NCBI RefSeq assembly: GCF_003858635.1
Contig: NZ_RQJO01000015.1
Location: 186,001-250,000, forward strand
DNA length: 64,000 bases
Direction of reading: 5' to 3'
Source: Larkinella rosea
GTDB lineage: Bacteria > Bacteroidota > Bacteroidia > Cytophagales > Spirosomataceae
Position 1 is the stretch's first letter, and every line of letters starts with the position of its first letter. Under the pieces are notes generated by a model, which was given only the letters and a program-made list of their open reading frames with translations, made no database searches and was not told the origin of the DNA. Below, in pieces: positions 5,827-61,151 of the stretch. A program made the position numbers and the translations under genes.

Positions 5827-5881
5827 ATTAAGAGTTAAGAGTTGCCTGACGGACTTTTAACTCTTAACTCTTAACTTTTAA
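5827..5881. repeat. Intergenic palindrome E1 (mreB-mreC)
   Basis: The left arm 5828-5843 (tandem AGAGTTA words) pairs with the right arm 5859-5874 (AACTCTTAACTCTTAA), perfect over 16 bases, around a 15-base loop; a further diverged word follows on the right. It fills almost all of the gap between mreB and mreC. There is no pure T run, so it is not a classic terminator. Confidence 0.85.
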
Positions 5882-5888
5882 CTCCCGT

Positions 5889-6728
5889 ATGTTCGAGTTA
5901 TTCCAGTTCATCGTCCGCAGCCGGAACTTCATCTTGTTTGTTCTGCTCGAGGTGTTGAGCTTTTATTTCATTATAAATAGCAATAATTACTGGAGCATTC
6001 GGTTCTTTAATACCTCGAATTATTACGCGGCCAAAATTATGGCCTGGTCGAATAAAGCGCAGGAATACGCCCGGCTGCGGCAGGTCAACACCGATCTGGC
6101 CGAAGAAAACCGGCGACTCAATGCGCTGGTCACGCAATTGCAGCAGTTTAAACCGCAGGCACCGACCAACTATAAAACCGACTCCATCTTTGCCACCCGG
6201 TTCCGGTTTACGGTCGCCCGCGTGATCAATAACACGACGCAACACCCCAATAATTACATTACGCTCGACAAAGGTACCGCCGATGGGATTCAACCGGGTA
6301 TGGGCGTGATTTCGCCAACCGGGGTCGTGGGCAAAGTCAAGATTTGTTCCGAACACATTTCGATTGTTACCTCCATTCTGCATTCGGATTACATGATTTC
6401 GTCGAAACTGGTCAAATCGGGCGTGATCGGTACGGCGAAATGGGACGGTGTTGACCCGACCCGCATGAAAATGCTGGATATTTCGCGCAATACGAAAATG
6501 TACCGGGGCGATTCGGTGGTGACGTCGGAATACAATTCGATCTTTCCGTCTGGCATTCTGGTGGGGCGCGTCATTCGCGTCGGCGAAATGCCCAACCAGA
6601 CGTTTCATGATGTGACGCTGTCCGTCGGAACCGATTTCAACAACCTGTCTTTCGTTTACGTGGTTGAGAATAAATTGCAGGGCGAGCAGGAAAAACTGGA
6701 AAAAACCACCGAACCGGAACGAAAATAA
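5889..6728 (+). CDS. mreC: rod shape-determining protein MreC
   Basis: Bitopic membrane protein linking the cytoplasmic MreB filament to the periplasmic elongasome (PBP2-RodA). The 279-residue sequence has one N-terminal membrane segment at about residues 13-32, a predicted coiled coil at about 50-80 (repeated RxxNxxLAEENRRLNALVTQ pattern) and the MreC beta-rich domain with ITLDKGTADGIQPGMGVISP and VVGKVKICSEHISIV. The charged C-terminal tail is short. It follows mreB after a palindromic gap and precedes mreD by 15 bp. Confidence 0.96.
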   Translation: MFELFQFIVRSRNFILFVLLEVLSFYFIINSNNYWSIRFFNTSNYYAAKIMAWSNKAQEYARLRQVNTDLAEENRRLNALVTQLQQFKPQAPTNYKTDSIFATRFRFTVARVINNTTQHPNNYITLDKGTADGIQPGMGVISPTGVVGKVKICSEHISIVTSILHSDYMISSKLVKSGVIGTAKWDGVDPTRMKMLDISRNTKMYRGDSVVTSEYNSIFPSGILVGRVIRVGEMPNQTFHDVTLSVGTDFNNLSFVYVVENKLQGEQEKLEKTTEPERK

Positions 6729-6743
6729 AGCCGATACTCGCCC

Positions 6744-7250
6744 ATGACGTTACGCGAAATCCTGAACATCATTTTCCTGTTTGTGCTGTATCTGTCCTTA
6801 CAGATCCTGATTGTACGGAATCTGGTGCTGTTCGACGTCGCGTTTTGTTTTATGTACGTGGCCTGTATTCTGTTGCTGCCCGCCGAAATGAGCCTGTCGG
6901 CTACATTGTTGGTCGCTTTTGTGGTCGGAATCATTGTCGATACGTTTTACAACACACTTGGCATGCACGCGGCCGCTACGGTTTTGATGGCGTATGTAAG
7001 GCCAATGGTGGTGCGGTTTCAGGCCGCCCGGGGCGGTTTTGACGGACGGATTGTCTTTTCAATTCACGAAATGGGATCGCTCAATTTCTTCTATTACGTC
7101 GTGATCCTGACGTTTATTCACCACTTCACGCTCTTCCTGATCGAAGCCAATAATATTCTTCTTTTTCTCCCGGCTTTGATCAAAATTGTCGCCAGTACGC
7201 TCTTCACCTCCGTCACGATCATGCTGGTCCAGTATTTTTCGCGGAATTGA
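6744..7250 (+). CDS. mreD: rod shape-determining protein MreD
   Basis: A 168-residue multi-spanning inner-membrane protein with about five hydrophobic segments. It is short and poorly conserved, as MreD proteins usually are, and is identified mainly by position directly after mreC and by the membrane profile (including VVGIIVDTFYNTLGMHAAATV, split by a helix break). It is expected to sit in the elongation complex with MreC and RodA. It ends the operon; 96 bp of AT-rich sequence separate it from the unrelated DUF433 gene. Confidence 0.9.
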   Translation: MTLREILNIIFLFVLYLSLQILIVRNLVLFDVAFCFMYVACILLLPAEMSLSATLLVAFVVGIIVDTFYNTLGMHAAATVLMAYVRPMVVRFQAARGGFDGRIVFSIHEMGSLNFFYYVVILTFIHHFTLFLIEANNILLFLPALIKIVASTLFTSVTIMLVQYFSRN

Positions 7251-7281
7251 TCAGAACTGATTTTAGCTCCTATCTTTTTGT

Positions 7282-7289
7282 TATTTTTG
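7282..7289 (+). promoter_or_regulatory. -7 box before the DUF433/DUF5615 pair
   Basis: TATTTTTG matches TAnnTTTG, 57 bases before the DUF433 ATG. No clean -33 box is seen. The pair therefore probably has its own promoter and does not depend on mreBCD. Confidence 0.45.
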
Positions 7290-7346
7290 AAAATGCCAGA
7301 ATTACAAGCATATTTATTTTGGTAATTCTAACATGATAAAGATCAC

Positions 7347-7580
7347 ATGAATTATCGCGAAAGAATAGTAGCTGATCATCAGATTATGCTGGGAAAACCG
7401 GTAATCAAGGGAACGCGCATTACCGTGGAAATCATCTTGCGGAAAATGTCAGAGGGGGCAATCATTTCTGATTTGGTCAGAATGTACCCTCATTTGCAGG
7501 AAGCCGATGTATTAGCCGCATTAATGTATGCCTCTGATTTAATGGCAAATGAAGAAATGATTGATTTGTCGGCTGCATGA
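7347..7580 (+). CDS. DUF433 family antitoxin-like protein
   Basis: A 77-residue protein with the DUF433 core GKPVIKGTRITVEIILRKMSEG followed by a helix-turn-helix-like stretch (DLVRMYPHLQEADVLAALMYA). Proteins of this family are usually encoded with a DUF5615 PIN-like partner and are regarded as antitoxin and DNA-binding autoregulator. The stop overlaps the next start by 4 bp. The pair sits alone between mreD and glpK and is AT-rich, both typical of a small mobile toxin-antitoxin cassette. Confidence 0.9.
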   Translation: MNYRERIVADHQIMLGKPVIKGTRITVEIILRKMSEGAIISDLVRMYPHLQEADVLAALMYASDLMANEEMIDLSAA

Positions 7581-7927
7581 TTATCGCCGATGAAAATATC
7601 GACCATTCTATTATTGCGTCCTTGCGTTCAGCAGGAATTGAAATTTATTCCATTTATGAATCCAATCGTGGCATTCGGGACGAAGCCGTGATCGAATCAT
7701 CCCGCAATCCGCCCCGAATTATTTTAACGGAAGACAAAGATTTTGGCGAGTGGGTATTTTCTCACCAGGTAAACGATATAAGCGTCATTTTTTTGCGTTA
7801 TCATTTTAAAGATACACAGGAGATAACCGCTACTTTGGTAAAGCTATTGGTTGAGCGGTTCAACGAATTTGTTGGTTGCTTTACTACAATTACTACCCAC
7901 AAGATCCGAATAAGAAAATTGAAATAA
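7577..7927 (+). CDS. DUF5615 family PIN-like putative toxin
   Basis: A 116-residue protein of the DUF5615 PIN-like group. It starts with the acidic motif IIADENIDHSI and has a second acidic site ILTEDKDFGEWVF near residue 52, consistent with a metal-dependent nuclease fold. It is translationally coupled to the DUF433 gene (ATGATTAT overlaps its stop). The likely role is RNase toxin of a VapBC-like type II system; the target RNA cannot be read from sequence. The C-terminal lysine-rich end (RIRKLK) is unremarkable. About 160 bp with no recognisable feature follow before glpK. Confidence 0.85.
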   Translation: MIIADENIDHSIIASLRSAGIEIYSIYESNRGIRDEAVIESSRNPPRIILTEDKDFGEWVFSHQVNDISVIFLRYHFKDTQEITATLVKLLVERFNEFVGCFTTITTHKIRIRKLK

Positions 7928-8087
7928 CTACTCTTCTGGTCGCGTCCACTTTACGTTTGGAATTATAAACCGCTTTGGCTCCTTTGCCATGTCGAATTTA
8001 TCCAAGTCCTATTCAATAGCGATAAATTCATATATTACGGCCTTTTTAGAAGATACTCCATAAAAATCAGCCGAATCCGAACCCTTT

Positions 8088-9587
8088 ATGCCCACCTACA
8101 TAGCCGCCATCGACCAGGGCACCACCAGCACGCGTTGCATTGTTTTTGATCGTCAGGGAACGATTGTTTCCATCGGACAAAAAGAACATTCGCAGATTTA
8201 TCCCCAGCCCGGCTGGGTTGAACACGATCCCGAAGAAATCTGGCGCAATACGCAGGAAGTCATCGCGCGGGCGCGGATCAATGCCCAGCTTCAGGCCGGC
8301 GACATTGCCGCCGTTGGCATCACCAACCAGCGCGAAACGACCGTGGTCTGGAACCGGAAAACCGGAAAACCGTATTACAACGCCCTCGTCTGGCAGGACA
8401 CCCGCACCGGCGGCCTTGTCGCGCAATTTGCCGAAGAAGGCGGTCAGGATCGTTTCCGGGCCACCACCGGACTGCCCCTGGCGACTTATTTTAGCGGTTT
8501 GAAAATCAAATGGATACTGGACAATGTGCCGGGCGTTCGCGAAGATGCCGAACGCGGTCTGGCGTTATTCGGCAATATGGATACCTTCCTAATCTGGAAC
8601 CTGACGGGTGGAACCTACAACGGTCTGCACATCACCGACGTCACCAACGCCAGCCGGACCCAGTTGATGAACCTGGAAACGCTGGAGTGGGACGATGCAC
8701 TGCTGGAAGCCTTCGCTATTCCGCGGGCGATGTTGCCGCAAATCCGCTCCAGCAGTGAGGTGTATGGAACCGTCACCTCGGAGGTGTTGCCGGGTGTTCC
8801 CATTGCCGGTATTCTGGGCGACCAGCAGGCAGCTTTGGTCGGGCAAACGTGTTTTGAACCGGGTCAGGCGAAAAATACCTACGGAACCGGTTGTTTTCTC
8901 CTCATGAATACCGGAACCGAACTGCGGCATTCGACCTACGGGTTATTGACAACGGTGGCCTACCGGTTTGGCGATCAGCCCGTTCATTATGCGCTGGAAG
9001 GCAGCGTGGCCATTGCTGGTGCGCTGGTGCAGTGGTTGCGGGATAACCTCGGCCTGATTTCGACTAGTGCCGAAGTCGATACGCTGGCCCGAACCGTGGC
9101 CGACAACGGCGGGGCGTATTTTGTGCCGGCGTTTTCCGGTTTATACGCGCCGTATTGGAAAGCCGACGCGCGGGGTGTTATCGCCGGGTTGACGCGGTTT
9201 GTGACTAAAGGCCATTTGGCAAGGGCGGTTTTGGAAGCCACGGCCTACCAGACGCTGGATGTCGTTCAGGCGATGGAAAAAGATGCCGATATCGAACTGA
9301 GTTCGTTACGCGTCGATGGCGGGATGACCATCAACGAGTTGTTGATGCAGTTTCAGTCCGATATGCTGGGTGTGCCGGTTATTCGTCCGAAAATGACCGA
9401 AACCACGGCGCTGGGCGCGGCTTATGCCGCCGGTTTGGCGGTAGGCTACTGGAGCGGTTTTGATGATTTGCGGCAGAACTGGGGAGTCGACCGGACGTTT
9501 GAACCTGACATGTCCGAAGATGATCGGCAACGGCTTTATCGCGGCTGGCAAAAAGCGGTTGAACGCTCGTTTGGCTGGGAAAATTAG
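8088..9587 (+). CDS. glpK: glycerol kinase
   Basis: Phosphorylates glycerol with ATP to sn-glycerol 3-phosphate in the cytoplasm. The 499-residue length is standard. The FGGY-type ATP site [13 protein letters not shown] begins at residue 9, followed by [12 protein letters not shown], the glycerol-contact [10 protein letters not shown] and the second FGGY signature [17 protein letters not shown] near residue 407. No glpF, glpD or regulator is adjacent; a glycerol-type channel gene lies about 49 kb away. A near-perfect 36-bp palindrome follows the stop codon. Confidence 0.97.
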
Positions 9588-9594
9588 AACGGCT

Positions 9595-9630
9595 TCCTGT
9601 GGTCACTGAATTAATTCGGTGACCACAGGA
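9595..9630. terminator. 36-bp near-perfect palindrome after glpK
   Basis: Arms TCCTGTGGTCAC (9595-9606) and GTGACCACAGGA (9619-9630) are perfect, and the centre TGAATTAATTCG continues the symmetry with one mismatch, giving 18-bp arms. No U tract follows, so simple Rho-independent termination is unlikely. It may be a stem protecting the mRNA end or a protein-binding site. It ends 22 bases before the -7 box of the exonuclease gene. Confidence 0.6.
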
Positions 9631-9652
9631 GGGCGGAGACCATACTCCTGCG

Positions 9653-9660
9653 TATTTTTG
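9653..9660 (+). promoter_or_regulatory. -7 box before the DnaQ-like exonuclease gene
   Basis: TATTTTTG matches TAnnTTTG, 27 bases before the ATG at 9688. Confidence 0.5.
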
Positions 9661-9687
9661 TAGCCGTACACACGTACGTACCCGGCT

Positions 9688-10497: not shown

Positions 10498-10549
10498 GAC
10501 CGCAAAAAAACCGCCCGGTTGCCTGTACTGATTCCAAATTCCCAAACCG

Positions 10550-10580
10550 TTTGAGTAAGCGGGAATATTACTTAACTTTG
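10550..10580 (+). promoter_or_regulatory. Full Bacteroidota promoter of nuoK-nuoN
   Basis: The -33 box TTTG is at 10550-10553 and the -7 box TAACTTTG at 10573-10580, with a 19-base spacer, which is the consensus arrangement. Transcription would start near 10587, leaving a leader of about 65 bases before nuoK. Confidence 0.75.
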
Positions 10581-10652
10581 CGGGGTCTTTTCCGGTGTTC
10601 CGAAAATTGCCGAACAAGAACTTAACCACCAGTATATAGACCTCAGCGCCGT

Positions 10653-11000: not shown

Positions 11001-11005
11001 GTTCC

Positions 11006-11084
11006 ATTAATTAATAATGAACAATTAAAAATGAATGAGTTAACACAAACATTATTCATTATTAATTATTCATTGTTCATTTTT
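11006..11084. repeat. Intergenic palindrome E2 (nuoK-nuoL)
   Basis: Left arm 11006-11038 and right arm 11051-11084 are imperfect reverse complements built from words such as AATGAACAATTAA and TTATTCATTGTTCAT. It shares these words with the palindrome at 28451-28580. The right arm ends in a T run, so it could also stop or pause transcription inside the nuo operon. Confidence 0.8.
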
Positions 11085-11107
11085 TTTACAACGCTATAGC
11101 TCTAAAA

Positions 11108-13045: not shown

Positions 13046-13089
13046 AAATGGGCGGATTGGTTAACAGTCACTTATCATACAACTAGTAG

Positions 13090-14544
13090 ATGCTTACACT
13101 TTCTATTCTGCTCTTTCCGATTCTGGCCGCGCTGCTGGTGCTGGCTGTTGGGGGGAAACAGGCCAAACAAATCGCTTTCGCTGGCGCGCTGGTCGAGCTG
13201 GCTTTATCGGGCTATGCTTTTCTGAACTTCGTTCCCGACGCAACTTCCCAATTCAGCTTCGATTATCCGTGGATTTTCGCGGGCAGCATCCGCTTTAGTG
13301 CCGGTATCGACGGCGTCAGTCTGCTGCTGGTTGTCCTGACGGGCCTGTTGACTCCGCTCATTATTCTCTCGGCATTCCGCCATACGTACGAACGTCCGGC
13401 GGTTTTTTATTCGCTGATTCTGTTCATGCAAGCCGCCCTGATGGGCGTTTTCACGGCGCGGGACGCCTTTCTGTTCTACCTGTATTTCGAAGCCGCGCTG
13501 ATTCCGATCTATTTTCTGGCCGCTTCCTGGGGTGGCGAAAACCGCATTGCCGTTACCTTCAAGTTCTTCGTTTACACCATTTTCGGGAGTTTGTTCATGC
13601 TGGTGGCGCTCGTTTATCTTTACTTCCAGACGTCGCCCGCAACCGGTATTCATTCGTCGGCCATCACCGATCTATATAACCTGAAACTCAGCGCCACGGA
13701 ACAAACCTGGATTTTCTGGGCCTTCTTCATTGCCTTTGCCATCAAAATGCCGGTTTTCCCGTTCCATACCTGGCAACCGGATACCTACGTGGAATCGCCG
13801 ACACCAGCCACCATGCTGCTGGCCGGAATTATGCTGAAAATGGGGGTTTACGGCGTCATTCGTCTGTTGCTGCCCATCGTTCCCGAAGGCGTCGATAGGT
13901 GGGGCACAACGGCCATTGTGCTTTCGGTCATCGGAATTGTCTACGGAGCGCTCATCGCCATTCGCCAGCGCGACATCAAGCGACTGATTGCGTATTCGTC
14001 ATTTTCGCACGTTGGCCTGATGGCCGCCGGAGTTTTCTCGCAAACGTCGTACGGAATTCAGGGCGCCCTGGTGCAGATGCTGGCGCACGGCATCAACGTC
14101 GTCGGAATGTTTTTCGTGGCCGACATCATTGCGTCGCGCACCAACACCCGGCTGCTCGACCAGATGGGCGGTATCACCCGCTACACGCCGAAGCTGACGG
14201 TATTCTTCATGATTCTGCTGCTCGGCAGTGTCGCGCTGCCGCTGACCAACGGTTTTGTCGGCGAGTTTTTATTGCTGGCGGGCGTGTTCGAACACAATAA
14301 TATACTGGGCGGTGTGGCCGGTCTGACGATTATTTTCGGAGCCGTTTACATGCTGCGGTTATTTCAGAAAGCCATGTTTGGTAAAACCACCGATTTGACG
14401 ACCGGTTTCAACGACGTTTCCGGGAGCGAAAGCTGGGTGTTTATCCCGCTTTGTTTTATGGTTTTCTGGATTGGACTTGTACCGAACTCATTTTTGAAAC
14501 TGACCGAACCGGCAGTTACGAACCTATTACAGTTTATAAAATAG
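13090..14544 (+). CDS. nuoM: NADH-quinone oxidoreductase subunit M
   Basis: Second antiporter-like proton-pumping subunit of complex I. The 484-residue protein has the family marks FYLYFEAALIPIYFLAASWGG near residue 135 (pump glutamate; hydrophobic helix), AFAIKMPVFPFHTWQPD near residue 217 (pump lysine) and RDIKRLIAYSSFSHVGLM. About 14 membrane helices are expected. The gap to nuoN holds a decayed palindrome beginning at this gene's stop codon. Confidence 0.97.
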   Translation: MLTLSILLFPILAALLVLAVGGKQAKQIAFAGALVELALSGYAFLNFVPDATSQFSFDYPWIFAGSIRFSAGIDGVSLLLVVLTGLLTPLIILSAFRHTYERPAVFYSLILFMQAALMGVFTARDAFLFYLYFEAALIPIYFLAASWGGENRIAVTFKFFVYTIFGSLFMLVALVYLYFQTSPATGIHSSAITDLYNLKLSATEQTWIFWAFFIAFAIKMPVFPFHTWQPDTYVESPTPATMLLAGIMLKMGVYGVIRLLLPIVPEGVDRWGTTAIVLSVIGIVYGALIAIRQRDIKRLIAYSSFSHVGLMAAGVFSQTSYGIQGALVQMLAHGINVVGMFFVADIIASRTNTRLLDQMGGITRYTPKLTVFFMILLLGSVALPLTNGFVGEFLLLAGVFEHNNILGGVAGLTIIFGAVYMLRLFQKAMFGKTTDLTTGFNDVSGSESWVFIPLCFMVFWIGLVPNSFLKLTEPAVTNLLQFIK

Positions 14545-14616
14545 TTTGAAGTTTAGGGTTTAACGTTTACCAATTCCATCCAGTAGACGTCAGGCCTTAA
14601 ATCGGATACCTCAAAC
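14544..14616. repeat. Decayed intergenic palindrome E3 (nuoM-nuoN)
   Basis: The left half GTTTGAAGTTTAGGG (14544-14558) and right half ending CCTCAAAC (14609-14616) are weak reverse complements with several mismatches and a length difference. Position and word style match the other intergenic palindromes, and I read it as an eroded copy. Confidence 0.45.
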
Positions 14617-14626
14617 GATACAAAAT

Positions 14627-24665: not shown

Positions 24666-24699
24666 AGGTTGGGGAGGTTTATGAACCGGAATTGACCGT

Positions 24700-24810
24700 C
24701 TTGAACTGGGATTACGCCGATTAAGGGATTAAGAGGAATTATCCTTTGGATTAAAATAACAGCGGAAGCAATCCTAGTTAATCCTTTAATCGGCGTAATC
24801 CGAGTTCAAG
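24700..24810. repeat. Intergenic palindrome E4 (33-bp arms)
   Basis: Left arm 24700-24732 and right arm 24778-24810 are reverse complements with two mismatches over 33 bases, built around GGATTAA and ATTACGCCGATTAA words. The 45-base middle is AT-rich. The element fills most of the 150-bp gap between the PfkB-family gene and the phosphoesterase, both minus strand, and ends 5 bases from the kinase stop codon. Confidence 0.9.
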
Positions 24811-24815
24811 ATGTT

Positions 24816-27466: not shown

Positions 27467-28465
27467 ATGCGCCTAAACAGGACCATCATTCTCTTTTGGC
27501 TGGCTGCGGTGATCACCGTCAGTGCCTGTAAGAGCAAAAAAAAGGATCAGCAGGAAAGTCAGGCCACCGAAGTTAAAACGGTTACGGCCCCGGCTTTTAA
27601 CGCCGATTCGGCTTATTCGTACGTTGAAAAACAAGTCGCATTTGGCCCGCGCGTACCCAATACCGACGCGCACCGCCGTTGTGGCGACTACCTGATCGCG
27701 TCGCTGAAGGCATTCGGTTGCGAAGTGACCGTGCAAAACTTCACGGCGACCACCTACGATAACCTGAAACTGAACGCCCGAAACATTATCGGCAGCATCA
27801 ATCCGCAGGCCGCCAAGCGCATCGTGCTGGCTTCGCACTGGGATTCGCGCCCGTTTTCCGATCAGGATAGTGTGACGAAAACCAAACCGGTTTTGGGAGC
27901 CAACGATGGTGCCAGCGGGGTTGGCATTTTGCTCGAAATGGCCCGCACGATCCAGAAATCCGGGGTTAAGCCCGAAGTTGGTATCGATCTGATTTTCTTC
28001 GATGCCGAAGATTGGGGGAATTCCGAACTGGCCAAAGACGAATACGGCGGTTTTTGCCTGGGGTCGCAATACTGGGCGGCTAACAAACACAAACCGGGTT
28101 ATGCGGCTTATTACGGTATTTTGCTGGACATGGTCGGTGCCAAAGGAGCGACATTTCTGAAAGAAGGCAATTCGATGCAATACGCCCCAACCGTCACCAA
28201 TCGTGTCTGGGAAACCGCCAGCAGCATGGGCTATAATCAGTATTTTGTCGATACGGGGCAATCGGGTCCGGCCATCACCGACGACCATTTGCCGGTCAAT
28301 AAAGTCGCTAAAATTCCGATGATCGACATTATTCACCTGAAAGTCGAATCCGGCAGCTTCTTCAAAGACTGGCATACGGCCCACGACGACATGGACAACA
28401 TCGACCGCAGCACACTCAAAGCTGTCGGGCAGGTGTTGCTGCAAACTTTGTATAATGAACAATGA
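27467..28465 (+). CDS. M28-family glutaminyl-peptide cyclotransferase-like lipoprotein
   Basis: Predicted lipoprotein (lipobox VSAC, Cys21) with the M28/glutaminyl cyclase fold, 332 residues. Glutaminyl cyclases turn N-terminal glutamine into pyroglutamate, which in many Bacteroidota caps exported proteins after signal cleavage. Zinc-site segments are ASHWDSRPF, LGANDGASGVGILLEM, IFFDAEDWGN and WHTAHDDMDNIDR; IPMIDIIHLK also fits. An aminopeptidase role is the alternative. The last codons and stop lie in the left end of palindrome E5, so the C-terminus LYNEQ comes from repeat sequence. Confidence 0.9.
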   Translation: MRLNRTIILFWLAAVITVSACKSKKKDQQESQATEVKTVTAPAFNADSAYSYVEKQVAFGPRVPNTDAHRRCGDYLIASLKAFGCEVTVQNFTATTYDNLKLNARNIIGSINPQAAKRIVLASHWDSRPFSDQDSVTKTKPVLGANDGASGVGILLEMARTIQKSGVKPEVGIDLIFFDAEDWGNSELAKDEYGGFCLGSQYWAANKHKPGYAAYYGILLDMVGAKGATFLKEGNSMQYAPTVTNRVWETASSMGYNQYFVDTGQSGPAITDDHLPVNKVAKIPMIDIIHLKVESGSFFKDWHTAHDDMDNIDRSTLKAVGQVLLQTLYNEQ

Positions 28466-28580
28466 ACCGCCGGGCGGCCCCGAATTAATAATGCACATTG
28501 AACAGGTCGTAGCACGTGCGTTAGGATGGAGCCGCCGGTTTTTCCTTTCATTATTCATTGTTCATTATTCATTGTTCATT
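28451..28580. repeat. Intergenic palindrome E5 that also carries coding sequence
   Basis: The left part has AATGAACAATGAAC (28454-28467) and a diverged copy at 28483-28503. The right part 28550-28580 is a tandem run of TTATTCATTGTTCA words, reverse complement of the left. It shares words with E2. The left end supplies the stop codon of the cyclotransferase gene, and the right arm is read as the signal-peptide core of the next protein. Confidence 0.85.
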
Positions 28581-33028: not shown

Positions 33029-33592
33029 ATGGAAAAGCTGAAAAAGAACTTTGAAAGAATGGGTTTTTCGGGAGACGATTTAGTAACTATTCTGGGTGCT
33101 TTTAAACTTCATGTATTCAAAAAAAACGATCTTGTTGTTGAAGAAGGCAAAACGAGCCGGCACATCGGGTTTGTTGAAAGTGGTATGTTTCAGTATTATG
33201 TACTGAAAGATGGCGAAGAAATAACGACTTATATTTCCATCGAAAATACGTTTTTTGCGTCGGTATTAAGTTTTGTCAGTGAATCCCCGGCGCTCGAAAA
33301 TGTCCGGGCGTTAACGGACGGAAGCATGAGCATGATCAGCAAAACCAATCTGAAAAGGCTGGTCAACGAAATGCCGAAATTCAAGGATTTCTACATCCAT
33401 TTATTAGAGCATTCGATTTGCGGCATTGATGCCAGCCGCCACGATCTGATTGCCCTGACTGCCGAGCAACGTTACGAGAAAATGCTCAAAAAAGAGCCCC
33501 ATCTTTTACAACAGATTCCGCTGCAATACCTGGCCTCTATTCTGGGGGTTACGCCCCGTCACCTCAGCCGCATCCGCAGCACCATTCGCTGA
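33029..33592 (+). CDS. Crp/Fnr-family cyclic-nucleotide-binding regulator
   Basis: A 187-residue regulator with a cNMP-type beta-barrel over about residues 20-115 (VFKKNDLVVEEGKTSRHIGF, then FVESGMFQYYVLKDGEEITT), a dimer helix and a short C-terminal helix-turn-helix (QIPLQYLASILGVTPRHLSR). Bacteroidota carry many such small Crp-like proteins, which often do not bind cAMP. Target genes are unknown; the TfoX-like gene 11 bp upstream is probably co-transcribed, and the pair lies between two gene remnants. Confidence 0.88.
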   Translation: MEKLKKNFERMGFSGDDLVTILGAFKLHVFKKNDLVVEEGKTSRHIGFVESGMFQYYVLKDGEEITTYISIENTFFASVLSFVSESPALENVRALTDGSMSMISKTNLKRLVNEMPKFKDFYIHLLEHSICGIDASRHDLIALTAEQRYEKMLKKEPHLLQQIPLQYLASILGVTPRHLSRIRSTIR

Positions 33593-33665
33593 TTTTTAGC
33601 CATTTGTCCAGTAAAAACCGTACTGGGTCCGAGATCTTTGCATCGTCTACTAAACAAAAGACGCT

Positions 33666-33866
33666 ATGCAACTCTTCCGAAAACCACTTTAGCTGTTCTG
33701 GCAGCCTTCCTTAGTCTTCCGCTCGTCATTACTTCCTGCAGTATTCATTCGGATTAATTATGGGATTTCGCCGGACTCCATCAAGACGGTTATTATTTCA
33801 CACCTGCACGAAGATCATACCGGCGGTTTGTCTTCGTTCCGGAAAGCGAGGGTGATCGTTCATTAA
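33666..33866 (+). pseudogene. Decayed metallo-beta-lactamase-fold lipoprotein gene
   Basis: The ATG at 33666 opens a frame that closes after eight codons. One base out of frame, a good lipoprotein signal peptide appears (TTLAVLAAFLSLPLVITSC), as if one A were lost from the run near 33680. Further on, in the ATG frame, SIKTVIISHLHEDHTGG keeps the HxHxDH zinc motif and ends at TAA 33864. The middle is deleted. Read together, it was an exported metallo-beta-lactamase-fold hydrolase, now dead. It occupies most of the 33593-33912 gap. Confidence 0.75.
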
Positions 33867-33912
33867 TTCTGAAAACCTCGGAGCGATAACGCCCGCAAAA
33901 CCGCTCATTCGG

Positions 33913-34905
33913 CTAAGATTGCCGCATCCGGTTTTCGGCCAGAATAAACGGCACGATTAAAAAACTCAGGCTGCTCAGAATTAAGTTAATTCCGAACCCA
34001 ACGGCATGCAGAAAGGTCGCAACGGCGGCTCCTTCGGTGGGCGAAAAGCCATACAGCACCAGCACCCGACTCACCAAAAAATGGTACGTACCGATGCCGC
34101 CCTGCGTCGGAACGGCCAGCCCACCGAGGGAACTGGCGGCCAGAATGGTCAGGGCGGCCGTGGGGGGCAGCGCACGTGTACTGTCCAGCGCCATCAGCAA
34201 CCAGTAGGTACTTAGCCACGCGAAAAACTGGTTTAACACTGTTAGAAGTACAAACAACAATGGATTGGGTAGCTGGCTAATGGCACTGAAACCCTTCCAG
34301 AGCCCCTTAACACTGTTAGCAATTTTTTGTGCAAATGCATGTTCCCGAACGGTCGATTTTCGTAACAAATGCAAAACCGCCCATCCCAACAGGACTAAAA
34401 TGACCAGGCCGCCGAGGAGAACCGCCCATCCGGTTTGGTCGGGAATTCGGAACGACAAACCGGATACATACGATTGCATCCGGCTTAATTCAAGCAAAAA
34501 AGTGAACAGCAGAACAGCGCCCAGCATGAACAGATCGATGATCCGCTCGGCTACCACCGAACCCACACCCTGCGCGAACGGAACCCGATCGGTGCGCTGT
34601 AAGGTTGCGCAACGGGTCAATTCGCCCGAACCTGGTACGATCAGGCTGGCAATCACGCCCGCGAGGGTGGCAACCGTCGCCCGAAAAGCCGTTGGAAAAT
34701 ACCCGAGTGCGAGCAGAGGCTGTTGCCAGCGTTTTCCGCGCACCAGATAATACAGAACCGTTACGAAACCCACCAGCATGATCCAGCCGTAGCGCGCCTG
34801 CCGGAATTGCCGCCCGATATCGACGAACGAAATATCCTTCAGAGCATACGTTAACAGGGCCAGCGCCAATCCAAGCGGAAGGAGATTTCGGAGTTGTTTC
34901 TTCAT
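33913..34905 (-). CDS. LPG synthase-like transmembrane protein (UPF0104/flippase-like)
   Basis: A 330-residue protein with about eight membrane helices, of the lysylphosphatidylglycerol synthase transmembrane (AglD-like) family. Typical pieces are VLYYLVRGKRWQQPL, LVVPGSGELTR-like SLIVPGSGELTRCATL, VAERIIDLFMLG and GGLAVPTQGGIGTYHFLV. The soluble aminoacyl-transfer domain is absent, so it is probably a lipid or lipid-linked-sugar transporter/flippase-like protein. The longer frame from 35016 adds 37 atypical residues. It is divergent from the glycan-assembly genes starting at 35054, which supports a cell-surface role. Confidence 0.85.
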   Translation of the reverse strand: MKKQLRNLLPLGLALALLTYALKDISFVDIGRQFRQARYGWIMLVGFVTVLYYLVRGKRWQQPLLALGYFPTAFRATVATLAGVIASLIVPGSGELTRCATLQRTDRVPFAQGVGSVVAERIIDLFMLGAVLLFTFLLELSRMQSYVSGLSFRIPDQTGWAVLLGGLVILVLLGWAVLHLLRKSTVREHAFAQKIANSVKGLWKGFSAISQLPNPLLFVLLTVLNQFFAWLSTYWLLMALDSTRALPPTAALTILAASSLGGLAVPTQGGIGTYHFLVSRVLVLYGFSPTEGAAVATFLHAVGFGINLILSSLSFLIVPFILAENRMRQS

Positions 34906-49706: not shown

Positions 49707-49710
49707 CCAA

Positions 49711-49791
49711 GAGAAAAGAGGATAGACAAGAGAATAAAGACTACTTCATTTTGTACTTGTCTTTACTCTCTTGTCTAACTTCTAACCTCTC
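49711..49791. repeat. Intergenic palindrome E6 (after the sigma factor gene)
   Basis: Left arm 49711-49741 and right arm 49759-49791 are imperfect reverse complements (core GACAAGAGAATAAAGAC with GTCTTTACTCTCTTGTC). The arms are made of AAGAGA-type words, as in the other intergenic palindromes. Two classic terminators follow it. Confidence 0.85.
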
Positions 49792-49840
49792 AAAAAGACA
49801 TTGATTGAGTAGTTTTTGGTTAAAAAAGAGGAAGGTTCCG

Positions 49841-49871
49841 AAAAGTTAGATGGTTTCCGTCTAACTTTTTT
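49841..49871 (+). terminator. First of two tandem terminators before crtI
   Basis: AAAAGTTAGA (49841-49850) pairs with TCTAACTTTTTT (49860-49871); stem 10 bp with a 9-base loop and a T run. Confidence 0.88.
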
Positions 49872-49881
49872 GGTTAGCGAG

Positions 49882-49909
49882 AAGACGGATTTTTCAATCC
49901 GTCTTTTTT
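49882..49909 (+). terminator. Second tandem terminator before crtI
   Basis: AAGACGGATT (49882-49891) and AATCCGTCTT (49896-49905) form a perfect 10-bp stem with a 4-base loop and T run. With the first terminator it should insulate crtI from the sigma gene. Confidence 0.9.
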
Positions 49910-49960
49910 GCGTTTATTACCCGGCAATTAGGAGTTTGGTTGGGGACAAAAATGTTCTAT

Positions 49961-53065: not shown

Positions 53066-53084
53066 CGGATTAATTACCTTATAG

Positions 53085-53180
53085 GGTTTACGGTTTTCAG
53101 TATACGGTTTTCAGTGGCTAACGCATTCATAGATCAGCGTGTGCCAGCTATCGAAAACCGTATACTGAAAACCGTAAACC
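53085..53180. repeat. Palindrome E7 in the gatB leader
   Basis: Left arm 53085-53119 and right arm 53146-53180 are reverse complements with about four mismatches over 35 bases, with tandem TACGGTTTTCAG words. The inner stem TGGCTAACGC/GCGTGTGCCA extends it. It is the same family as E8, which lies 2.8 kb away. Confidence 0.9.
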
Positions 53181-53205
53181 AGGCTTTTACTTAAGATTTT
53201 GCTTC

Positions 53206-54705: not shown

Positions 54706-54717
54706 CAGTCAGGGAAA

Positions 54718-55866
54718 ATGAAAACAAATCGGATTGGATTCGTCGTTTTAATGGGATTGGCCCTACCAGCAGCTGTTTTGGCCCAGACTGCCGGCAACGA
54801 ATTTACGGTAAGCGGTACGCTGCAAAATGCCAAACCGGGCAGTAAAGCGTATCTGGAAACCAACGAACAGATTTCAAGAAAGATCGACTCCGCCCAAATC
54901 GACGCTTCGGGAAAGTTCGCCCTGAAAGGCCGCGAAGTGAACGGCGGAAGTTTCTACAAACTGAATCTGGGCAACGGGCAGGTTTCGAGTCTGTTGGTGG
55001 AAGGTGGTGAAAATCTGACGGTTACGGCCGATGCCAACGACAAAAGCAAATGGCAGATAACGGGTTCTACCAATATGGAGTTCTACCCGAAAATTGTGGC
55101 CATCGACACCGAAATGCGGGAAAAACACAAGGCTTGGCAGAAACGGGCCGCGGCAGCTGCGCAGAAGGACGATTTCAAAGCCGGTCAGGCCATTGACCAG
55201 GAGGTCGTCACCGCAAATCAGAAAGTGATCGAAACCGTCAAGACGATGATTCCGCAGATGGGTACGGCGAGTGTGGCCATGATCGCCCTGAAATACCTGG
55301 ATCCGAAAGACCATTTTGCCCTGTATGAGTCGCTGGCGCAAAAGATGCAGGCAGCCAACAAAACCGGGAAGCAGGCTACGGCGTTTATCGAGTTTGTGAA
55401 ATCGATGAAGGCGGAGCAGAGCGCACAAGCCAATCAGGTTGCGGTGGTGGAAGGCGCAACGGCACCGGATGTTACGCTGGAAAACGCGGAGGGCAAGGCC
55501 ATTAGCCTGTCGTCGTTACGGGGTAAATACGTGCTGATCGATTTCTGGGCATCGTGGTGCGGGCCGTGTCGGCAGGAAAACCCGAATGTGGTCCGGATGT
55601 ATAACAAATACAAGGAAAAGGGATTTGAAGTATATAGCATCTCGCTCGACGACAGCCGGGACAAATGGCTGAAAGCCGTTCAGACCGACGGCATGATCTG
55701 GACCAACGTGCTGGGGAAAAAGAACGGAGCTTCGCCCGTAGCCATTCAGTACTCGATTCAAGTCATTCCGACTACTTTTTTGCTGGATAAAGAAGGCCGA
55801 ATCATCGCCAAAAATCTCCGTGGCCCGGCGCTGGAGCAAAAGCTTGGCGAAATCCTGGATAAATAA
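54718..55866 (+). CDS. TlpA-like thioredoxin-fold protein with an N-terminal DUF4369-like domain
   Basis: Secreted thiol-disulfide protein of 382 residues: signal peptide ending near residue 22 (AVLAQ), an N-terminal beta domain (FTVSGTLQNAKPGSKAYLE) of the DUF4369 type, a helical middle and a C-terminal redoxin domain with FWASWCGPCRQE (Cys281 and Cys284) and VIPTTFLLDKEG. It probably handles disulfides or reduced cysteines in the periplasm. It is 12 bp after gatB, likely one transcript, and is followed by palindrome E8. Confidence 0.93.
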   Translation: MKTNRIGFVVLMGLALPAAVLAQTAGNEFTVSGTLQNAKPGSKAYLETNEQISRKIDSAQIDASGKFALKGREVNGGSFYKLNLGNGQVSSLLVEGGENLTVTADANDKSKWQITGSTNMEFYPKIVAIDTEMREKHKAWQKRAAAAAQKDDFKAGQAIDQEVVTANQKVIETVKTMIPQMGTASVAMIALKYLDPKDHFALYESLAQKMQAANKTGKQATAFIEFVKSMKAEQSAQANQVAVVEGATAPDVTLENAEGKAISLSSLRGKYVLIDFWASWCGPCRQENPNVVRMYNKYKEKGFEVYSISLDDSRDKWLKAVQTDGMIWTNVLGKKNGASPVAIQYSIQVIPTTFLLDKEGRIIAKNLRGPALEQKLGEILDK

Positions 55867-55872
55867 GCAAAA

Positions 55873-55966
55873 GTTTACGGTTTTCAGTTTACGGTGGCTG
55901 GCGCACGCTTTTAGAATGCGTCAGCCTACCGAAAACCGTAAACTGAAAACCATAAACTGAAAACCC
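55873..55966. repeat. Intergenic palindrome E8 (redoxin-proC)
   Basis: Left arm 55873-55905 and right arm 55917-55966 contain the same words as E7 (TTTACGGTTTTCAG and CTGAAAACCGTAAAC), with an inner stem TGGCTGGCGCA/TGCGTCAGCCTA. The right arm has one additional word. It ends seven bases before the proC ATG. Confidence 0.9.
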
Positions 55967-55973
55967 ACTAAAA

Positions 55974-56777: not shown

Positions 56778-56797
56778 AACCCTGTCAACGGTCGTAG

Positions 56798-56855
56798 ACC
56801 CTGACAGCGGTTTAGTAATTTATTTCAAACTCTAAATTCAGCCGCTGTCAGGGTT
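56798..56855. repeat. Intergenic palindrome E9 (proC-purB, convergent)
   Basis: Left arm 56798-56822 (ACCCTGACAGCGG...) and right arm 56833-56855 (...CCGCTGTCAGGGTT) pair, with a few mismatches. A further partial word lies at 56779-56790. The right arm covers the first bases of the purB stop codon (56854-56856). It can act as a two-way terminator. Confidence 0.85.
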
Positions 56856-58194: not shown

Positions 58195-58212
58195 AGGCGA
58201 AAAAAGAAACCG

Positions 58213-58220
58213 CAAAGTTA
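58213..58220 (-). promoter_or_regulatory. -7 box of purB
   Basis: Minus-strand TAACTTTG matches TAnnTTTG, 18 bases upstream of the purB ATG. Confidence 0.5.
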
Positions 58221-58348
58221 ACGGAACCACTCGAAACCATTCTCCAGAATAATTAAAATTCCTGTATATTGGCGGCTTTATGACAGAACAAATATTTTAT
58301 TGACTTTATAAGGCTTTGTGCTTTTCCTAAACCCACTCATTTAGTTCT

Positions 58349-59074
58349 ATGCAACTTTCTCCCTTCCTCGGTGAACTGGTTGGCACCATGATATTGATTT
58401 TATTGGGCGATGGCGTTGTCGCAAACGTGGTATTGAAGAAAACCAAGGGAGAGTCGTCCGGCTGGATTGTCATTACCACCGGCTGGGCATTTGCCGTGAC
58501 GTTGGGCATATTCGTTGCCAAGGTGTTTGGAAGTATCGACGCCCACCTGAATCCGGCTGTCACGGTGGCTTTCGCCGTTGCCACCGGCGATTTCAGCAAA
58601 ATGGCCAGCTACATTCCCGCTCAACTCATCGGGGCATTTTTAGGGGCAGTCCTCGTATGGCTCCAGTATTTGCCGCATTGGGCCGCCACGCCCGATCCGG
58701 GGGCAAAACTGGCGGTTTTTTCCACCGACCCGGCTATCCGTCACCCAACGGGTAACCTGATCAGCGAAACCATCGGAACCATCGCGCTCATCATCGGCAT
58801 TGCCGGAATTTCGGCCAAAGCCCTCGGAACGATTGCGATTGGGCTGGGACCGTACCTGGTCGGGGTTCTGGTCTGGAGCATTGGCCTTTCATTGGGCGGA
58901 ACGACCGGTTACGCCATCAATCCCGCCCGCGACCTCGGTCCGCGCATTGCCCATGCGATTCTGCCGATTCCCGGGAAAGGTTCGTCGGACTGGGGTTACG
59001 CCTGGGTGCCCATCGTTGGCCCGATTATCGGTGCGGTTTTAGGCGGTTTGCTGATTCGCTGGTACGCCTTGTAA
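58349..59074 (+). CDS. glpF: MIP-family glycerol/water channel
   Basis: Six-helix inner-membrane channel of 241 residues. The two pore half-helices have AHLNPAVTVAFAVATGD and YAINPARDLGPRIAH; Asp after NPAR is the aquaglyceroporin mark, so glycerol is the likely solute. There is no glpK beside it; glpK is 49 kb away in this window. It ends 8 bp from the convergent bioA gene. Confidence 0.93.
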   Translation: MQLSPFLGELVGTMILILLGDGVVANVVLKKTKGESSGWIVITTGWAFAVTLGIFVAKVFGSIDAHLNPAVTVAFAVATGDFSKMASYIPAQLIGAFLGAVLVWLQYLPHWAATPDPGAKLAVFSTDPAIRHPTGNLISETIGTIALIIGIAGISAKALGTIAIGLGPYLVGVLVWSIGLSLGGTTGYAINPARDLGPRIAHAILPIPGKGSSDWGYAWVPIVGPIIGAVLGGLLIRWYAL

Positions 59075-59082
59075 AGGCGGTT

Positions 59083-60402
59083 TTACGATTGATTCAGATG
59101 CCTGAGCAATTTCTCGACGGCCGCATAAACCGTGTTCAGTTCCTCATCGGTGATGCAGTACGGCGGAAAAATATACAGGACATTCCCTAAAGGCCGCATC
59201 AAAACTCCCTCATTGAGCAGAAAGTTATAAGCTATATCCCGGATATTGCTGAAGTAAGCCCGGTTCGAGTCGTCTACATCCAGATCGAACGCCAGAATCG
59301 TGCCCTGCTGGCGAACGTTTTTCACACCCGGTTTTTGCTTCAATTGTCCCGCAAAAACCGCCTGCCGCCGGACGATGCGCTGAATAGCCGCCTGTGTTTC
59401 GTCGGAAAGCAACAGATCAAGACTGGCAAGGGCCGCCGTACAGGCCAGCGGATTGGCCGTGAAGGAGTGCCCGTGAAAAAGGGTTTTGTGCCTGTCGCCG
59501 GATAGAAATGCGTTGTAAATTTCGTTTGTACAGGTCGTGACGCCCAGCGCCATGGTTCCGCCGGTCAATCCTTTCGATAAACTCATCAAATCCGGTTGTT
59601 CGCTCAGGTAGTGCGACGCAAACAGTTTGCCGGTTCGGCCAAAACCGGTCATTACCTCGTCGGTAATGATCAGCGCACCGTGGCTCCGGGCCAAACTCAT
59701 GAGCTGATTCAGAATCTCCGGCGCATACATGACCATGCCGCCCGATCCCTGCACCAGCGGTTCTACGATAAAAGCCGCGACCTCGTCACTCAATAAGGCC
59801 TGTAACCGCTCCAGCGCCACCTGCTCCTGCCCCGGAACAGGCGCCGGAATGTATTCGACATCAAACAGAAAGGGCACAAACGGAGCCGTAAAGGCACTCC
59901 GTCCGCTGACCGCCATCGCCCCGAACGTATCGCCGTGGTAGGCATCGTCCAGCGCAATCACTTTCCGGCGTGGTTTTCCAAGGTTGTGCCAGTATTGAAA
60001 CGCCATTTTGAGCGCCACTTCCACCGCCGTCGAGCCGTTATCGGAATAGAAAACCCTGGCCTGATTTTTCGGTAAAATCGTGATTAACCGCTCGGCCAGT
60101 TCGATGGCAGGCTGGTGTGTAAAACCGGCAAAAATGACGTGTTCGAGCGTTTGAAGCTGTTCGGCCACTTTTTCGGCAATGTACGGATGGCTGTGGCCGT
60201 GAATAGTAACCCACCACGACGAAACCGCATCGATGTACGTTTTTCCGTCTTCGGCAACCAACAGCGTGCCTTCACCCCGAACAATCGGAATCGGCAGCGG
60301 AGCGGTTTGCATTTGCGTGAACGGATGCCAGATTACGGCCTTGTCGCGCTCGGCCCATTCCAGAGCCAGACCGGTCCGGTTTTCATTCGTATCAATTTCC
60401 AT
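59083..60402 (-). CDS. bioA: Adenosylmethionine-8-amino-7-oxononanoate transaminase
   Basis: PLP aminotransferase that converts 8-amino-7-oxononanoate (KAPA) to 7,8-diaminopelargonate, with S-adenosylmethionine as amino donor. The 439-residue protein has WHPFTQMQTAPLPIPIV, SSWWVTIHGHSHPYIAEKV, YSDNGSTAVEVALKMAFQYW and SLSKGLTGGTMALGV (PLP lysine). The start at 60402 (MEIDTNENRTG) overlaps bioD by 11 bp. A longer frame of 38 codons is atypical. It is third in the bioF-bioD-bioA run. Confidence 0.96.
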   Translation of the reverse strand: MEIDTNENRTGLALEWAERDKAVIWHPFTQMQTAPLPIPIVRGEGTLLVAEDGKTYIDAVSSWWVTIHGHSHPYIAEKVAEQLQTLEHVIFAGFTHQPAIELAERLITILPKNQARVFYSDNGSTAVEVALKMAFQYWHNLGKPRRKVIALDDAYHGDTFGAMAVSGRSAFTAPFVPFLFDVEYIPAPVPGQEQVALERLQALLSDEVAAFIVEPLVQGSGGMVMYAPEILNQLMSLARSHGALIITDEVMTGFGRTGKLFASHYLSEQPDLMSLSKGLTGGTMALGVTTCTNEIYNAFLSGDRHKTLFHGHSFTANPLACTAALASLDLLLSDETQAAIQRIVRRQAVFAGQLKQKPGVKNVRQQGTILAFDLDVDDSNRAYFSNIRDIAYNFLLNEGVLMRPLGNVLYIFPPYCITDEELNTVYAAVEKLLRHLNQS

Positions 60403-61024
60403 CGTGTTCTTCCAATAAAGCACGCATAACAGCGGCATAACGACTGACAAATTCTTTACTAATTCCGGTTTCCCAATCAATCCGCCCGAAACGACGTAAG
60501 CCGGTATAATTGACAATAAATTCTTCCGATGCCGGGGTCGACGGGCCGTTAAAAACCAATCCGAGAATCGGAATACCCCGGTTTTTCAACGCTTCGACCG
60601 ACAATAAGGTATGATTGATACTCCCCAGATAGTGTTTGGAAACCAGCAAAACCGGGAGATTCAGTTGCTGAACCAGATCAATCGTCAGGTCGTGGTCGTT
60701 TAGCGGAACCAGCAAACCGCCCGCCAGTTCGACGACCAGAGCGTTGGCGGTTTTGGGTAACTGGAACGCATTCAGCGAAATTTCAATGCCGTCGATGGCG
60801 GCTGCTGCGTGGGGAGACAATGGTTCGCGCAACCGGTACGTTTCCGGATGAAACCGGGTAACGGGATTGGAAATCAGCCGCCGGACGGTTTCGGTATCGC
60901 TATCTTCCAGCGCACCGGATTGCACCGGTTTCCAGTAATCGGCCTGAAGGGCTTCCACCACGATGGACGAAACGACGGTTTTACCGATTTCGGTCCCAAT
61001 TCCGGCAATGATTAATTTACGCAT
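60392..61024 (-). CDS. bioD: Dethiobiotin synthetase
   Basis: ATP-dependent carboxylation of diaminopelargonate to dethiobiotin. The 210-residue protein has the P-loop-like start IIAGIGTEIGKTVVSSIVVE at residues 4-23 (family normally GTDTGVGKT; here GIGTEIGKT), then YWKPVQSG and LVVELAGGLLVPL (usual VEGAGG replaced by VELAGG). The ATG at 61024 is used; five codons more are open. Overlaps bioA by 11 bp; palindrome E10 separates it from bioF. Confidence 0.95.
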   Translation of the reverse strand: MRKLIIAGIGTEIGKTVVSSIVVEALQADYWKPVQSGALEDSDTETVRRLISNPVTRFHPETYRLREPLSPHAAAAIDGIEISLNAFQLPKTANALVVELAGGLLVPLNDHDLTIDLVQQLNLPVLLVSKHYLGSINHTLLSVEALKNRGIPILGLVFNGPSTPASEEFIVNYTGLRRFGRIDWETGISKEFVSRYAAVMRALLEEHDGN

Positions 61025-61045
61025 GTATTTTATTGACAAGTTGGG

Positions 61046-61151
61046 GATAGGAACGCGGATTGAACGGATTAAACAGATTAAAACTGATTTTATCCGTTTT
61101 TAATCCGTTCAATCCGTCAAATCGCATCGGCGACCCGGCCGCGTTCCTATC
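61046..61151. repeat. Intergenic palindrome E10 (bioF-bioD)
   Basis: The outer arms GATAGGAACGCGG (61046-61058) and CCGCGTTCCTATC (61139-61151) pair perfectly, and inner arms ATTGAACGGATTAAA (61059-61073) and TTTTTAATCCGTTCAAT (61097-61113) pair with one slip. The inner region has tandem GGATTAA words. The bioF stop codon (61147-61149) lies in the right outer arm. Confidence 0.85.

What the first reader, a model, noticed from the sequence alone, without database searches (positions are those of the whole stretch)
5827..61151. A dispersed set of about ten long word-repeat palindromes between genes
Elements at 5827-5881, 11006-11084, 14544-14616 (decayed), 24700-24810, 28451-28580, 49711-49791, 53085-53180, 55873-55966, 56798-56855 and 61046-61151 share one plan: 16-35 bp imperfect inverted arms, each arm built of tandem 6-15 nt words, placed exactly in a gene-gene gap. 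Each group uses its own word; E7/E8 share one and E2/E5 share another. All but one lie between co-directional genes or in a leader, so they are not simply convergent terminators. They may be processing stems, attenuators, or a non-autonomous mobile hairpin. None contains a gene.
Basis: partly seen in the sequence, partly recalled or inferred. Interest (0 to 1): 0.8.

Follow-up and report, generated by a model that had tools for sequence, protein, structure and literature searches.

The report
Shape-shifting hairpins behind bacterial stop codons
A bacterium of the genus Larkinella and several sister species carry many short DNA palindromes just behind gene ends, often built from repeated 7-letter words that differ between lineages while the two halves of a palindrome tend to change together.

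Summary
The palindromes are real. The window is from a Larkinella-like genome (nearest named hit L. terrae). In 984 kb of it, 89 inverted repeats score 16 or more, against none in one shuffle; 76 lie between genes. Arms have a strong 7-nt period. They sit behind stop codons: 50 of 363 codirectional and 22 of 98 convergent gaps, but 2 of 123 divergent gaps. Only 3 of 49 have a T-tract. Two window gaps hold one in 8 of 9 Larkinella genomes, with clade-specific words: TTCATT in one clade, TTCATC in another. A genome about 95% identical to two sisters carries other content in three gaps, flanks little changed. Both arms change together (305 double changes, 106 expected), yet one-sided changes give G·T and A·C equally (233 vs 236), which fits coupling at the DNA level better than selection for an RNA stem. 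No heptamer-word hairpin was seen near 28 Y1-transposase loci. Best reading: REP/MITE-like dispersed palindromes rewritten at the DNA level; the mobilising enzyme is unknown. New variant of a known kind.

The parts
5819..5883 (.). E1, palindrome between mreB and mreC, word TTAACTC (family B), arms 25 nt, loop 15
   Evidence: mreB PF06723 and mreC PF04085; scored hairpin in 8 of 9 Larkinella genomes, class TTAACTC in 5 and TTCATC in 3
11009..11081 (.). E2, palindrome between nuoK and nuoL, word TTCATTA/G (family C)
   Evidence: score 11 or more in 8 of 9 genomes, class TTCATC in four relatives
14544..14616 (.). E3, decayed palindrome between nuoM and nuoN, word GTTTAAC/GTTTGAA (family M)
   Evidence: scores 13 in G002 and G003 only; gaps of 48, 47 and 28 nt without a scored hairpin in G006, G007, G008
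24699..24811 (.). E4, palindrome, outer end GAACTGGGATTACGC (family F), arms 34 nt, loop 45
   Evidence: similar ends at C11:189332 and C13:65585 of this genome; the orthologous gap was not matched in any of the 8 relatives
28451..28580 (.). E5, partly decayed TTCATTA/G palindrome (family C) at the end of the M28 peptidase gene; holds a GC-rich piece
   Evidence: the orthologous gap was not matched in relatives
49710..49790 (.). E6, palindrome behind an ECF-type sigma factor gene, words GACAAGAG/TTCTAAC (family K)
   Evidence: words visible in all 7 species read (by eye), score 11 or more in 6 of 7
53085..53180 (.). E7, palindrome in the gap upstream of gatB, words TTTACGG/TTTTCAG (family A)
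   Evidence: scored in 5 of 7 species, not in L002 and L003
55872..55966 (.). E8, palindrome between a thioredoxin-like gene and proC, family A with core GGCTGGCGC...GCGTCAGCC
   Evidence: scored in 5 of 7 species, not in L003 and L007; in L007 the gap is 35 nt with one arm left
56798..56855 (.). E9, palindrome between convergent proC and purB, word CCCTGACAGCGG (family H)
   Evidence: family H in 5 of 7 species, an unrelated repeat in L003, gap of 12 nt in L004
61046..61151 (.). E10, palindrome between an aminotransferase gene (bioF-like) and an AAA_26 gene (bioD-like), ends GATAGGAAC...GTTCCTATC, word GGATTGAAC (family G)
   Evidence: visible in 6 of 7 species (by eye), scored in 5 of 7; about 30 nt gap in L003

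Best explanation
These are lineage-specific, non-coding dispersed palindromes (REP/MITE-like in habit) that sit directly behind stop codons. Shown: families of the same word recur at many unlinked gaps; at most compared loci the two arms change together; a gap can keep a palindrome while its word or whole family differs between close sisters, with the flanking genes little changed; one-sided changes show no RNA preference. Inferred: arms stay complementary because DNA synthesis copies one arm from the other when the hairpin forms in single-stranded DNA (quasipalindrome correction); 7-nt words multiply by slippage; and copies are spread or overwritten between loci by an unidentified trans-acting step, perhaps a transposase acting on single-stranded hairpins, for which an existing palindrome is a favoured landing place. 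The position behind stop codons then reflects where such DNA is tolerated. Any effect on the mRNA (for instance protection of 3' ends) would be incidental.
For: Density: 89 vs 0 in a shuffle, 76 intergenic. Words shared genome-wide and palindromic: 66 forward and 68 reverse matches of an A word in G000, near-balanced in the other word-rich genomes, 0 in reversed-pattern controls. Clade dialects, matches on both strands: TTCATT words G000 163, G004 321, the other seven 1-16; TTCATC words G003 102, G002 77, G006 74, G007 70, G004 30, G000 13, the other three 0-3; the tree joins G000 to G004. A strict TTCATT hairpin pattern: 43 matches (nested ones counted apart) in G000, none in 246 other genomes drawn from the phylum. 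Gap-limited replacement: in G007 three gaps carry other content than in G002/G003 while flanks stay 90.5-97.0% identical to one or both. Arm coupling: both sides changed 305 vs 106 expected, 229 still paired; arm complementarity within a species exceeds cross-species in 176 of 234 comparisons, 20 ties. No RNA signature. Period 7. Position. Core GGCTGACGC shared by word families A, B and Cc: CTGACGC in 16 of 212 hairpins vs 0.9 expected.
Against: No insertion with target-site duplication was seen: flanks of 20 copies of five families show none by eye. No enzyme is tied to the word families. Occupancy is sticky: orthologous gaps share hairpins above chance in two comparisons (6/4/6/46, OR 11.5; 6/5/7/59, OR 10.1; both p 0.002) but not in a third (1/4/2/22, p 0.45), and in 3 of 8 small window comparisons; persistence could also mean selection for a stem. 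For E6 and E10 the within-species advantage is absent or slight (20.3 vs 19.5; 24.2 vs 24.7), for E7 small (28.4 vs 25.6). The G-U test lacks power: the terminator control gave 10 vs 3, not distinguishable from 35 vs 31 (p 0.14). One search counts ordered species pairs (241 of 426 possible ones passed its filters), so its cells are not independent. One family D copy (C11:313699) has the opposite polarity.
Confidence: 0.55

Rival explanations
1. RNA elements under selection: 3'-end stabilising stems, RNase III processing sites or attenuators inside operons. The stem is needed, its letters are not, hence co-variation and persistence at the same gaps.
For: Hairpins score in 8 of 9 genomes at mreBC and nuoKL and hug the stop codon: 35 of 50 start within 12 nt of it, against 16 of 50 ending within 12 nt of the next start. 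Double changes keep pairing in 229 of 305.
Against: G-T about equals A-C. For the same genes, sister species have gaps without a scored hairpin (E8 in L007, E9 in L004, nuoMN in G006-G008). G001, G005 and G008 have almost none of the three word types counted.
Confidence: 0.2
2. Ordinary REP/BIME elements moved by REP-associated tyrosine transposases (RAYT).
For: One weak Y1_Tnp match at G000:C13:33813 is flanked by CCGGAGC palindromes, and several other Y1_Tnp genes of the genus lie near GTCGCTACGCGAC or CCCACGGTT palindromes, so REP-like systems live in these genomes. Y1_Tnp copy number and word counts rise together weakly (rho 0.62, p 0.07, confounded by clade).
Against: No heptamer-word hairpin was seen within about 600 nt of the 28 Y1_Tnp matches. 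Word-poor G008 has two uninterrupted copies. Whole palindromes are longer than the 20-40 bp of the REPs described in PMC3733652.
Confidence: 0.15
3. Intrinsic transcription terminators.
For: Behind stop codons and commonest in convergent gaps.
Against: T-tract after 3 of 49 codirectional hairpins; several lie inside the mreBC and nuo gene runs.
Confidence: 0.05
4. Accident of AT-rich composition.
For: Several words are simple and AT-rich.
Against: 0 inverted repeats in dinucleotide shuffles vs 89; shared words with clade patterns.
Confidence: 0.01

Closest known systems
REP / BIME / REPIN elements with RAYT (Di Nocera 2013, PMC3733652: outline, abstract and passages seen; REPINs PMC3116915: search listing only)
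   Same: Short extragenic palindromes, many copies, lineage-specific, between codirectional and convergent genes, several families in one genome.
   Different: Longer arms, often of tandem 7-nt words; family exchange at a fixed gap; no RAYT seen beside the word families. Loops of families A, B, Cc hold GCGTCAGCC, which contains CGTC, but not as a terminal unpaired tag.
Heptanucleotide direct repeats, e.g. TAACTGA in Beggiatoaceae, Cyanobacteria and five Bacteroidetes (PMC4679880: outline, abstract and passages seen); LSSR survey of Mrazek 2007 only as cited there
   Same: 7-nt unit, intergenic, patchy distribution, related words mixed in.
   Different: Those are direct repeats (one inverted case among 170 in that genome), mostly upstream of start codons; here two arms are inverted copies and lie behind stop codons.
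STRR repeats of cyanobacteria (recalled; search listing only)
   Same: Heptamer tandem repeats (recalled).
   Different: Not palindromic, as far as I recall.
MITEs (recalled definition)
   Same: Non-coding, inverted-repeat, dispersed.
   Different: No target-site duplication seen, no parent transposon found.

Membership tests
REP (GTAG/CGTC tagged) | Short palindromic repeats in high copy, extragenic, between codirectional and convergent genes | tested here: met
   72 of 461 codirectional plus convergent gaps vs 2 of 123 divergent
REP (GTAG/CGTC tagged) | Unpaired GTAG or CGTC tag at one end, stem 5-13 bp | tested here: inconclusive
   No tag scan was run; arms are 15-46 nt. CGTC occurs inside the core of families A, B, Cc, not at an end
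REP moved by RAYT | RAYT gene flanked by the same repeat | tested here: not met
   No heptamer-word hairpin within about 600 nt of 28 Y1_Tnp matches; met by the separate CCGGAGC family
MITE | Target-site duplication | tested here: not met
   20 copies of five families, none by eye; heptamer families A, B, C were not examined for this
MITE | Terminal inverted repeats with fixed polarity | tested here: met
   Fixed in 25 of 25 left-arm matches of four word classes; one family D copy is reversed. The outer ends of families D-G and I were used to find the copies, so their constancy is not independent
Heptamer tandem repeats (LSSR/STRR/TAACTGA) | 7-nt tandem unit | tested here: met
   Lag 7 z 9.4 over 75 arms, though only 14 of 75 arms are strongly 7-periodic one by one
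Heptamer tandem repeats (LSSR/STRR/TAACTGA) | Direct arrays without inverted partner | tested here: not met
   Words come as inverted arms, counts near-balanced on both strands
Intrinsic terminator | Stem followed by T-tract | tested here: not met
   3 of 49
Structured cis-acting RNA | Co-variation with G-U tolerance in the transcribed strand | tested here: inconclusive
   Co-variation met; no significant G-U excess, but the control shows limited power
Structured cis-acting RNA | Known Rfam family | tested here: not met
   No match at gathering threshold in the window
Retroelement product | Reverse transcriptase in the genomes that carry it | tested here: not met
   RVT_1 in 3 of 9 genomes, none in word-rich G002, G003, G004, G006

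The most novel reading that the evidence does not exclude
An unrecognised activity keeps rewriting resident palindromes genome-wide in the current 7-letter dialect of a lineage: the gap and a conserved core (GGCTGACGC) stay, the arms are replaced in trans, so that one element type appears under several word families. Palindromes would then be addresses, not passengers.
Probability: 0.2. Interest if true: 0.8.

Novelty: new variant of a known kind. Interest (0 to 1): 0.56.

Why it matters
Co-varying arms are usually taken as proof of a selected RNA. Here strong co-variation comes without a visible G-U signature, which makes this genus a natural test of DNA-level hairpin-templated mutation and a warning for RNA discovery by co-variation. 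The 7-nt step and the lineage dialects give a handle on why heptamers are common among bacterial tandem repeats, for which the passage I saw in PMC4679880 cites a polymerase-slippage proposal.

Tried and rejected
Rejected: Rfam family; reverse transcriptase as source; RAYT as direct partner; loss of the palindrome nuclease SbcCD as the cause, since SbcD is over its cut-off in 9 of 9 genomes (SbcC not searched); exchange of long alleles between species as the cause of family switching at mreBC and nuoMN in G007, since 400-nt flanks stay closest to G002/G003 (93.0-97.0% and 92.5-96.0%). At the third gap the right 200 nt are 90.5% to G003 by an ungapped count, so exchange there is less firmly excluded. 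A GC-rich REP-like piece seen inside some hairpins is not clearly enriched there (3 of 212 vs 1.2 expected). E4 and E5 could not be compared. Literature: five searches showed in their listings no description of heptamer-word palindromes in Larkinella or Bacteroidetes; one search listed 10 of 23,623 papers, none with Larkinella, and the library holds open-licence papers only, so absence from print is not shown. Gene calls in scripts are a greedy longest-ORF method, so gap counts and orientations are approximate (in one search the mreBC gap is labelled convergent by mistake). Family labels come from hand-written word patterns; 92 of 212 hairpins fit none. Dropped before counts: gaps over 400 nt or unmatched, arms under 18 nt, species pairs under 65% identity, under 40 aligned letters or without a hairpin; one search used 5 of 8 G genomes and 3 of 6 named records against the window.
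Full report
What it is. The window is G000:C13:186001-250000 of an 8.17-Mb genome. A protein from it (window 54718-55866) has its nearest named relatives in six Larkinella records, 75-96% identical. The ten elements exist. Over 984 kb of this genome (window, C10:1-420000, C11:1-420000, C13:1-80000) an ungapped finder reports 89 inverted repeats at score 16 or more and 0 in one dinucleotide-preserving shuffle of each piece; 76 of the 89 are intergenic by a rough gene caller. The listing at score 15 gives 90 intergenic ones, including a few terminator-like short-loop ones.

Anatomy. Arms are 15-46 nt. Self-match of 75 arms peaks at lag 7 (0.409 vs 0.292 shuffled, z 9.4) and lag 14 (z 7.4); 15 of 75 arms have a lag at 70% or more, 14 of them lag 7. 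Word families recur: TTTACGG/TTTTCAG, TTAACTC, TTCATTA/G, and others such as CGGAGTTAAG, GGATTGAAC, CCCTGACAGCGG, ATGATTACGGTGA. Heptamer words keep one polarity in 25 of 25 scored left arms; one family D copy, C11:313699, is reversed. The core motif CTGACGC / GCGTCAG is in 16 of 212 hairpins (0.9 expected from other intergenic DNA): 10 of 20 of family A, 2 of 12 of B, 2 of 13 of Cc, 2 of 92 unclassified, 0 in 15 of C and in the other families, so three word families share a core.

Position. In gaps of 30-600 nt, hairpins occupy 50 of 363 codirectional, 22 of 98 convergent and 2 of 123 divergent gaps (p 2.7e-6 for divergent against the rest). In codirectional gaps 35 of 50 start within 12 nt of the stop codon or overlap it, and 16 of 50 end within 12 nt of the next start. 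Codirectional gaps with a hairpin have median 134 nt, hairpin 84, remainder 39; those without, 61.

Comparison of gaps. Six Larkinella records and eight genomes G001-G008 were compared with the window. mreB-mreC and nuoK-nuoL hold a scored hairpin in 8 of 9 genomes, but the word is TTAACTC or TTCATT in some and TTCATC in others. E7 is not scored in L002 and L003; E8 in L007 is cut down to one arm; E9's gap is 12 nt in L004; E10 is absent in L003. Along C10, 64 gaps could be matched in G004 and 84 in G006. Of those under 400 nt, occupancy (both / own only / other only / neither) was 6/4/6/46 and 6/5/7/59, both p 0.002; G004 against G006 gave 1/4/2/22, p 0.45. Of eight comparisons with the window, W-G006, W-G003 and W-G001 fell below 0.05 and five did not.

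Replacement. Among G002, G003 and G007 (94.7-95.3% identical over four genes), 23 gaps could be compared in all three. Flanks of the first two are 92.5-97.0% identical to G002/G003 and less to the other genomes; for the third, 97.0% left and 90.5% right to G003 by an ungapped count.

Dialects. Both-strand matches of 20-mers with one mismatch allowed, overlapping ones counted apart: TTCATT words G000 163, G004 321, G002 16, G007 9, G003 8, G006 7, G005 5, G001 4, G008 1. TTCATC words G003 102, G002 77, G006 74, G007 70, G004 30, G000 13, G001 3, G005 2, G008 0. Family A words (two mismatches allowed): G003 209, G000 134, G006 120, G002 113, G004 92, G007 77, G005 8, G001 2, G008 0, and some in three further genera of the 39-genome search. 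A strict TTCATT hairpin pattern matched only G000 among 247 genomes drawn from the phylum, a draw that held no other genome of its genus. The tree joins G000 with G004, and G008 with G001 and G005, the three word-poor genomes.

DNA or RNA. Local-alignment complementarity of the two arms is higher within a species than across species in 176 of 234 ordered comparisons, with 20 ties (means 23.2 and 17.7), driven by mreBC, nuoKL, proC-purB and thio-proC; E6 and E10 show little or no difference. On 241 ordered species pairs that passed the filters (of 426 possible), 5116 paired columns gave 305 changes on both sides against 106 expected if independent, 229 still paired. Single-sided changes: 233 G-T, 236 A-C, 395 other. 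Leaving out the two loci not read on the transcribed plus strand (60516, 56777), G-T 187 and A-C 190. Mismatches within arms: 35 vs 31 in 57 own codirectional hairpins, 44 vs 33 in 55 from relatives, orthologues among them, together p 0.24. Terminator-like stems as a control gave 10 vs 3 in 35 stems, not significantly different from 35 vs 31 (p 0.14). So the absence of a G-U excess is consistent with the DNA reading but not overwhelming; that a structured RNA would favour G-U is established knowledge.

Mobility. Y1_Tnp matches occur in all nine genomes, 28 places. Near many of them lie other palindromes (GTCGCTACGCGAC, CCCACGGTT, CCGGAGC and others) and near none a heptamer-word hairpin, looking about 600 nt to each side; one label A in L167 is a false match to AAACCGTTGAAACGGTTT. 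In G001 the single copy has an in-frame stop and in G005 it is partial, but word-poor G008 has two uninterrupted ones. Reverse transcriptase: 3 of 9. SbcD: 9 of 9. No target duplications seen in 20 copies.

Reading. Dispersal and lineage-wide word change are shown; arm coupling is shown; DNA-level coupling is supported; the enzyme and the copying step are inferred. The nearest described things are REP-type palindromes (PMC3733652) and heptamer direct repeats (PMC4679880); neither has word-built inverted arms or family exchange at a fixed gap in the passages I saw.

Noticed in passing
window, about 49791-49925: A non-coding block right behind E6 with two T-tailed hairpins (AAAAGTTAGATGGTTTCCGTCTAACTTTTTTGG and AAGACGGATTTTTCAATCCGTCTTTTTTG) is nearly unchanged by eye in the 7 Larkinella species read, unlike E6 beside it; no Rfam match. 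Possible small RNA or terminators.
   Followed up: no
window 9590-9635: A 23-nt-arm palindrome in the gap at 9587-9687 is scored in 7 of 9 genomes; its stem differs by a paired change between the window and G003/G007. Possible operator or RNA element.
   Followed up: no
L104 1125-1893 (G000:C13, about 33437-34205): An ORF of about 190 aa with a weak Y1_Tnp match (21.9 bits, below cut-off) is closely flanked on both sides by CCGGAGCGSTGCTCCGG palindromes: a likely REP/RAYT unit.
   Followed up: partly
window 28467-28482; mreBC of G005 and G007; nuoKL of G004; nuoMN of G006 and G007: A short GC-rich REP-like piece (like GGGGCCGCCCGGCGG) sits inside or in place of word hairpins; counted over all hairpins it is not clearly enriched (3 of 212 vs 1.2 expected).
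   Followed up: partly
nuoM-nuoN gap of G006 and G007: G006 and G007 share one short allele while G002 and G003, closer to G007, share another: discordant with the species tree.
   Followed up: partly
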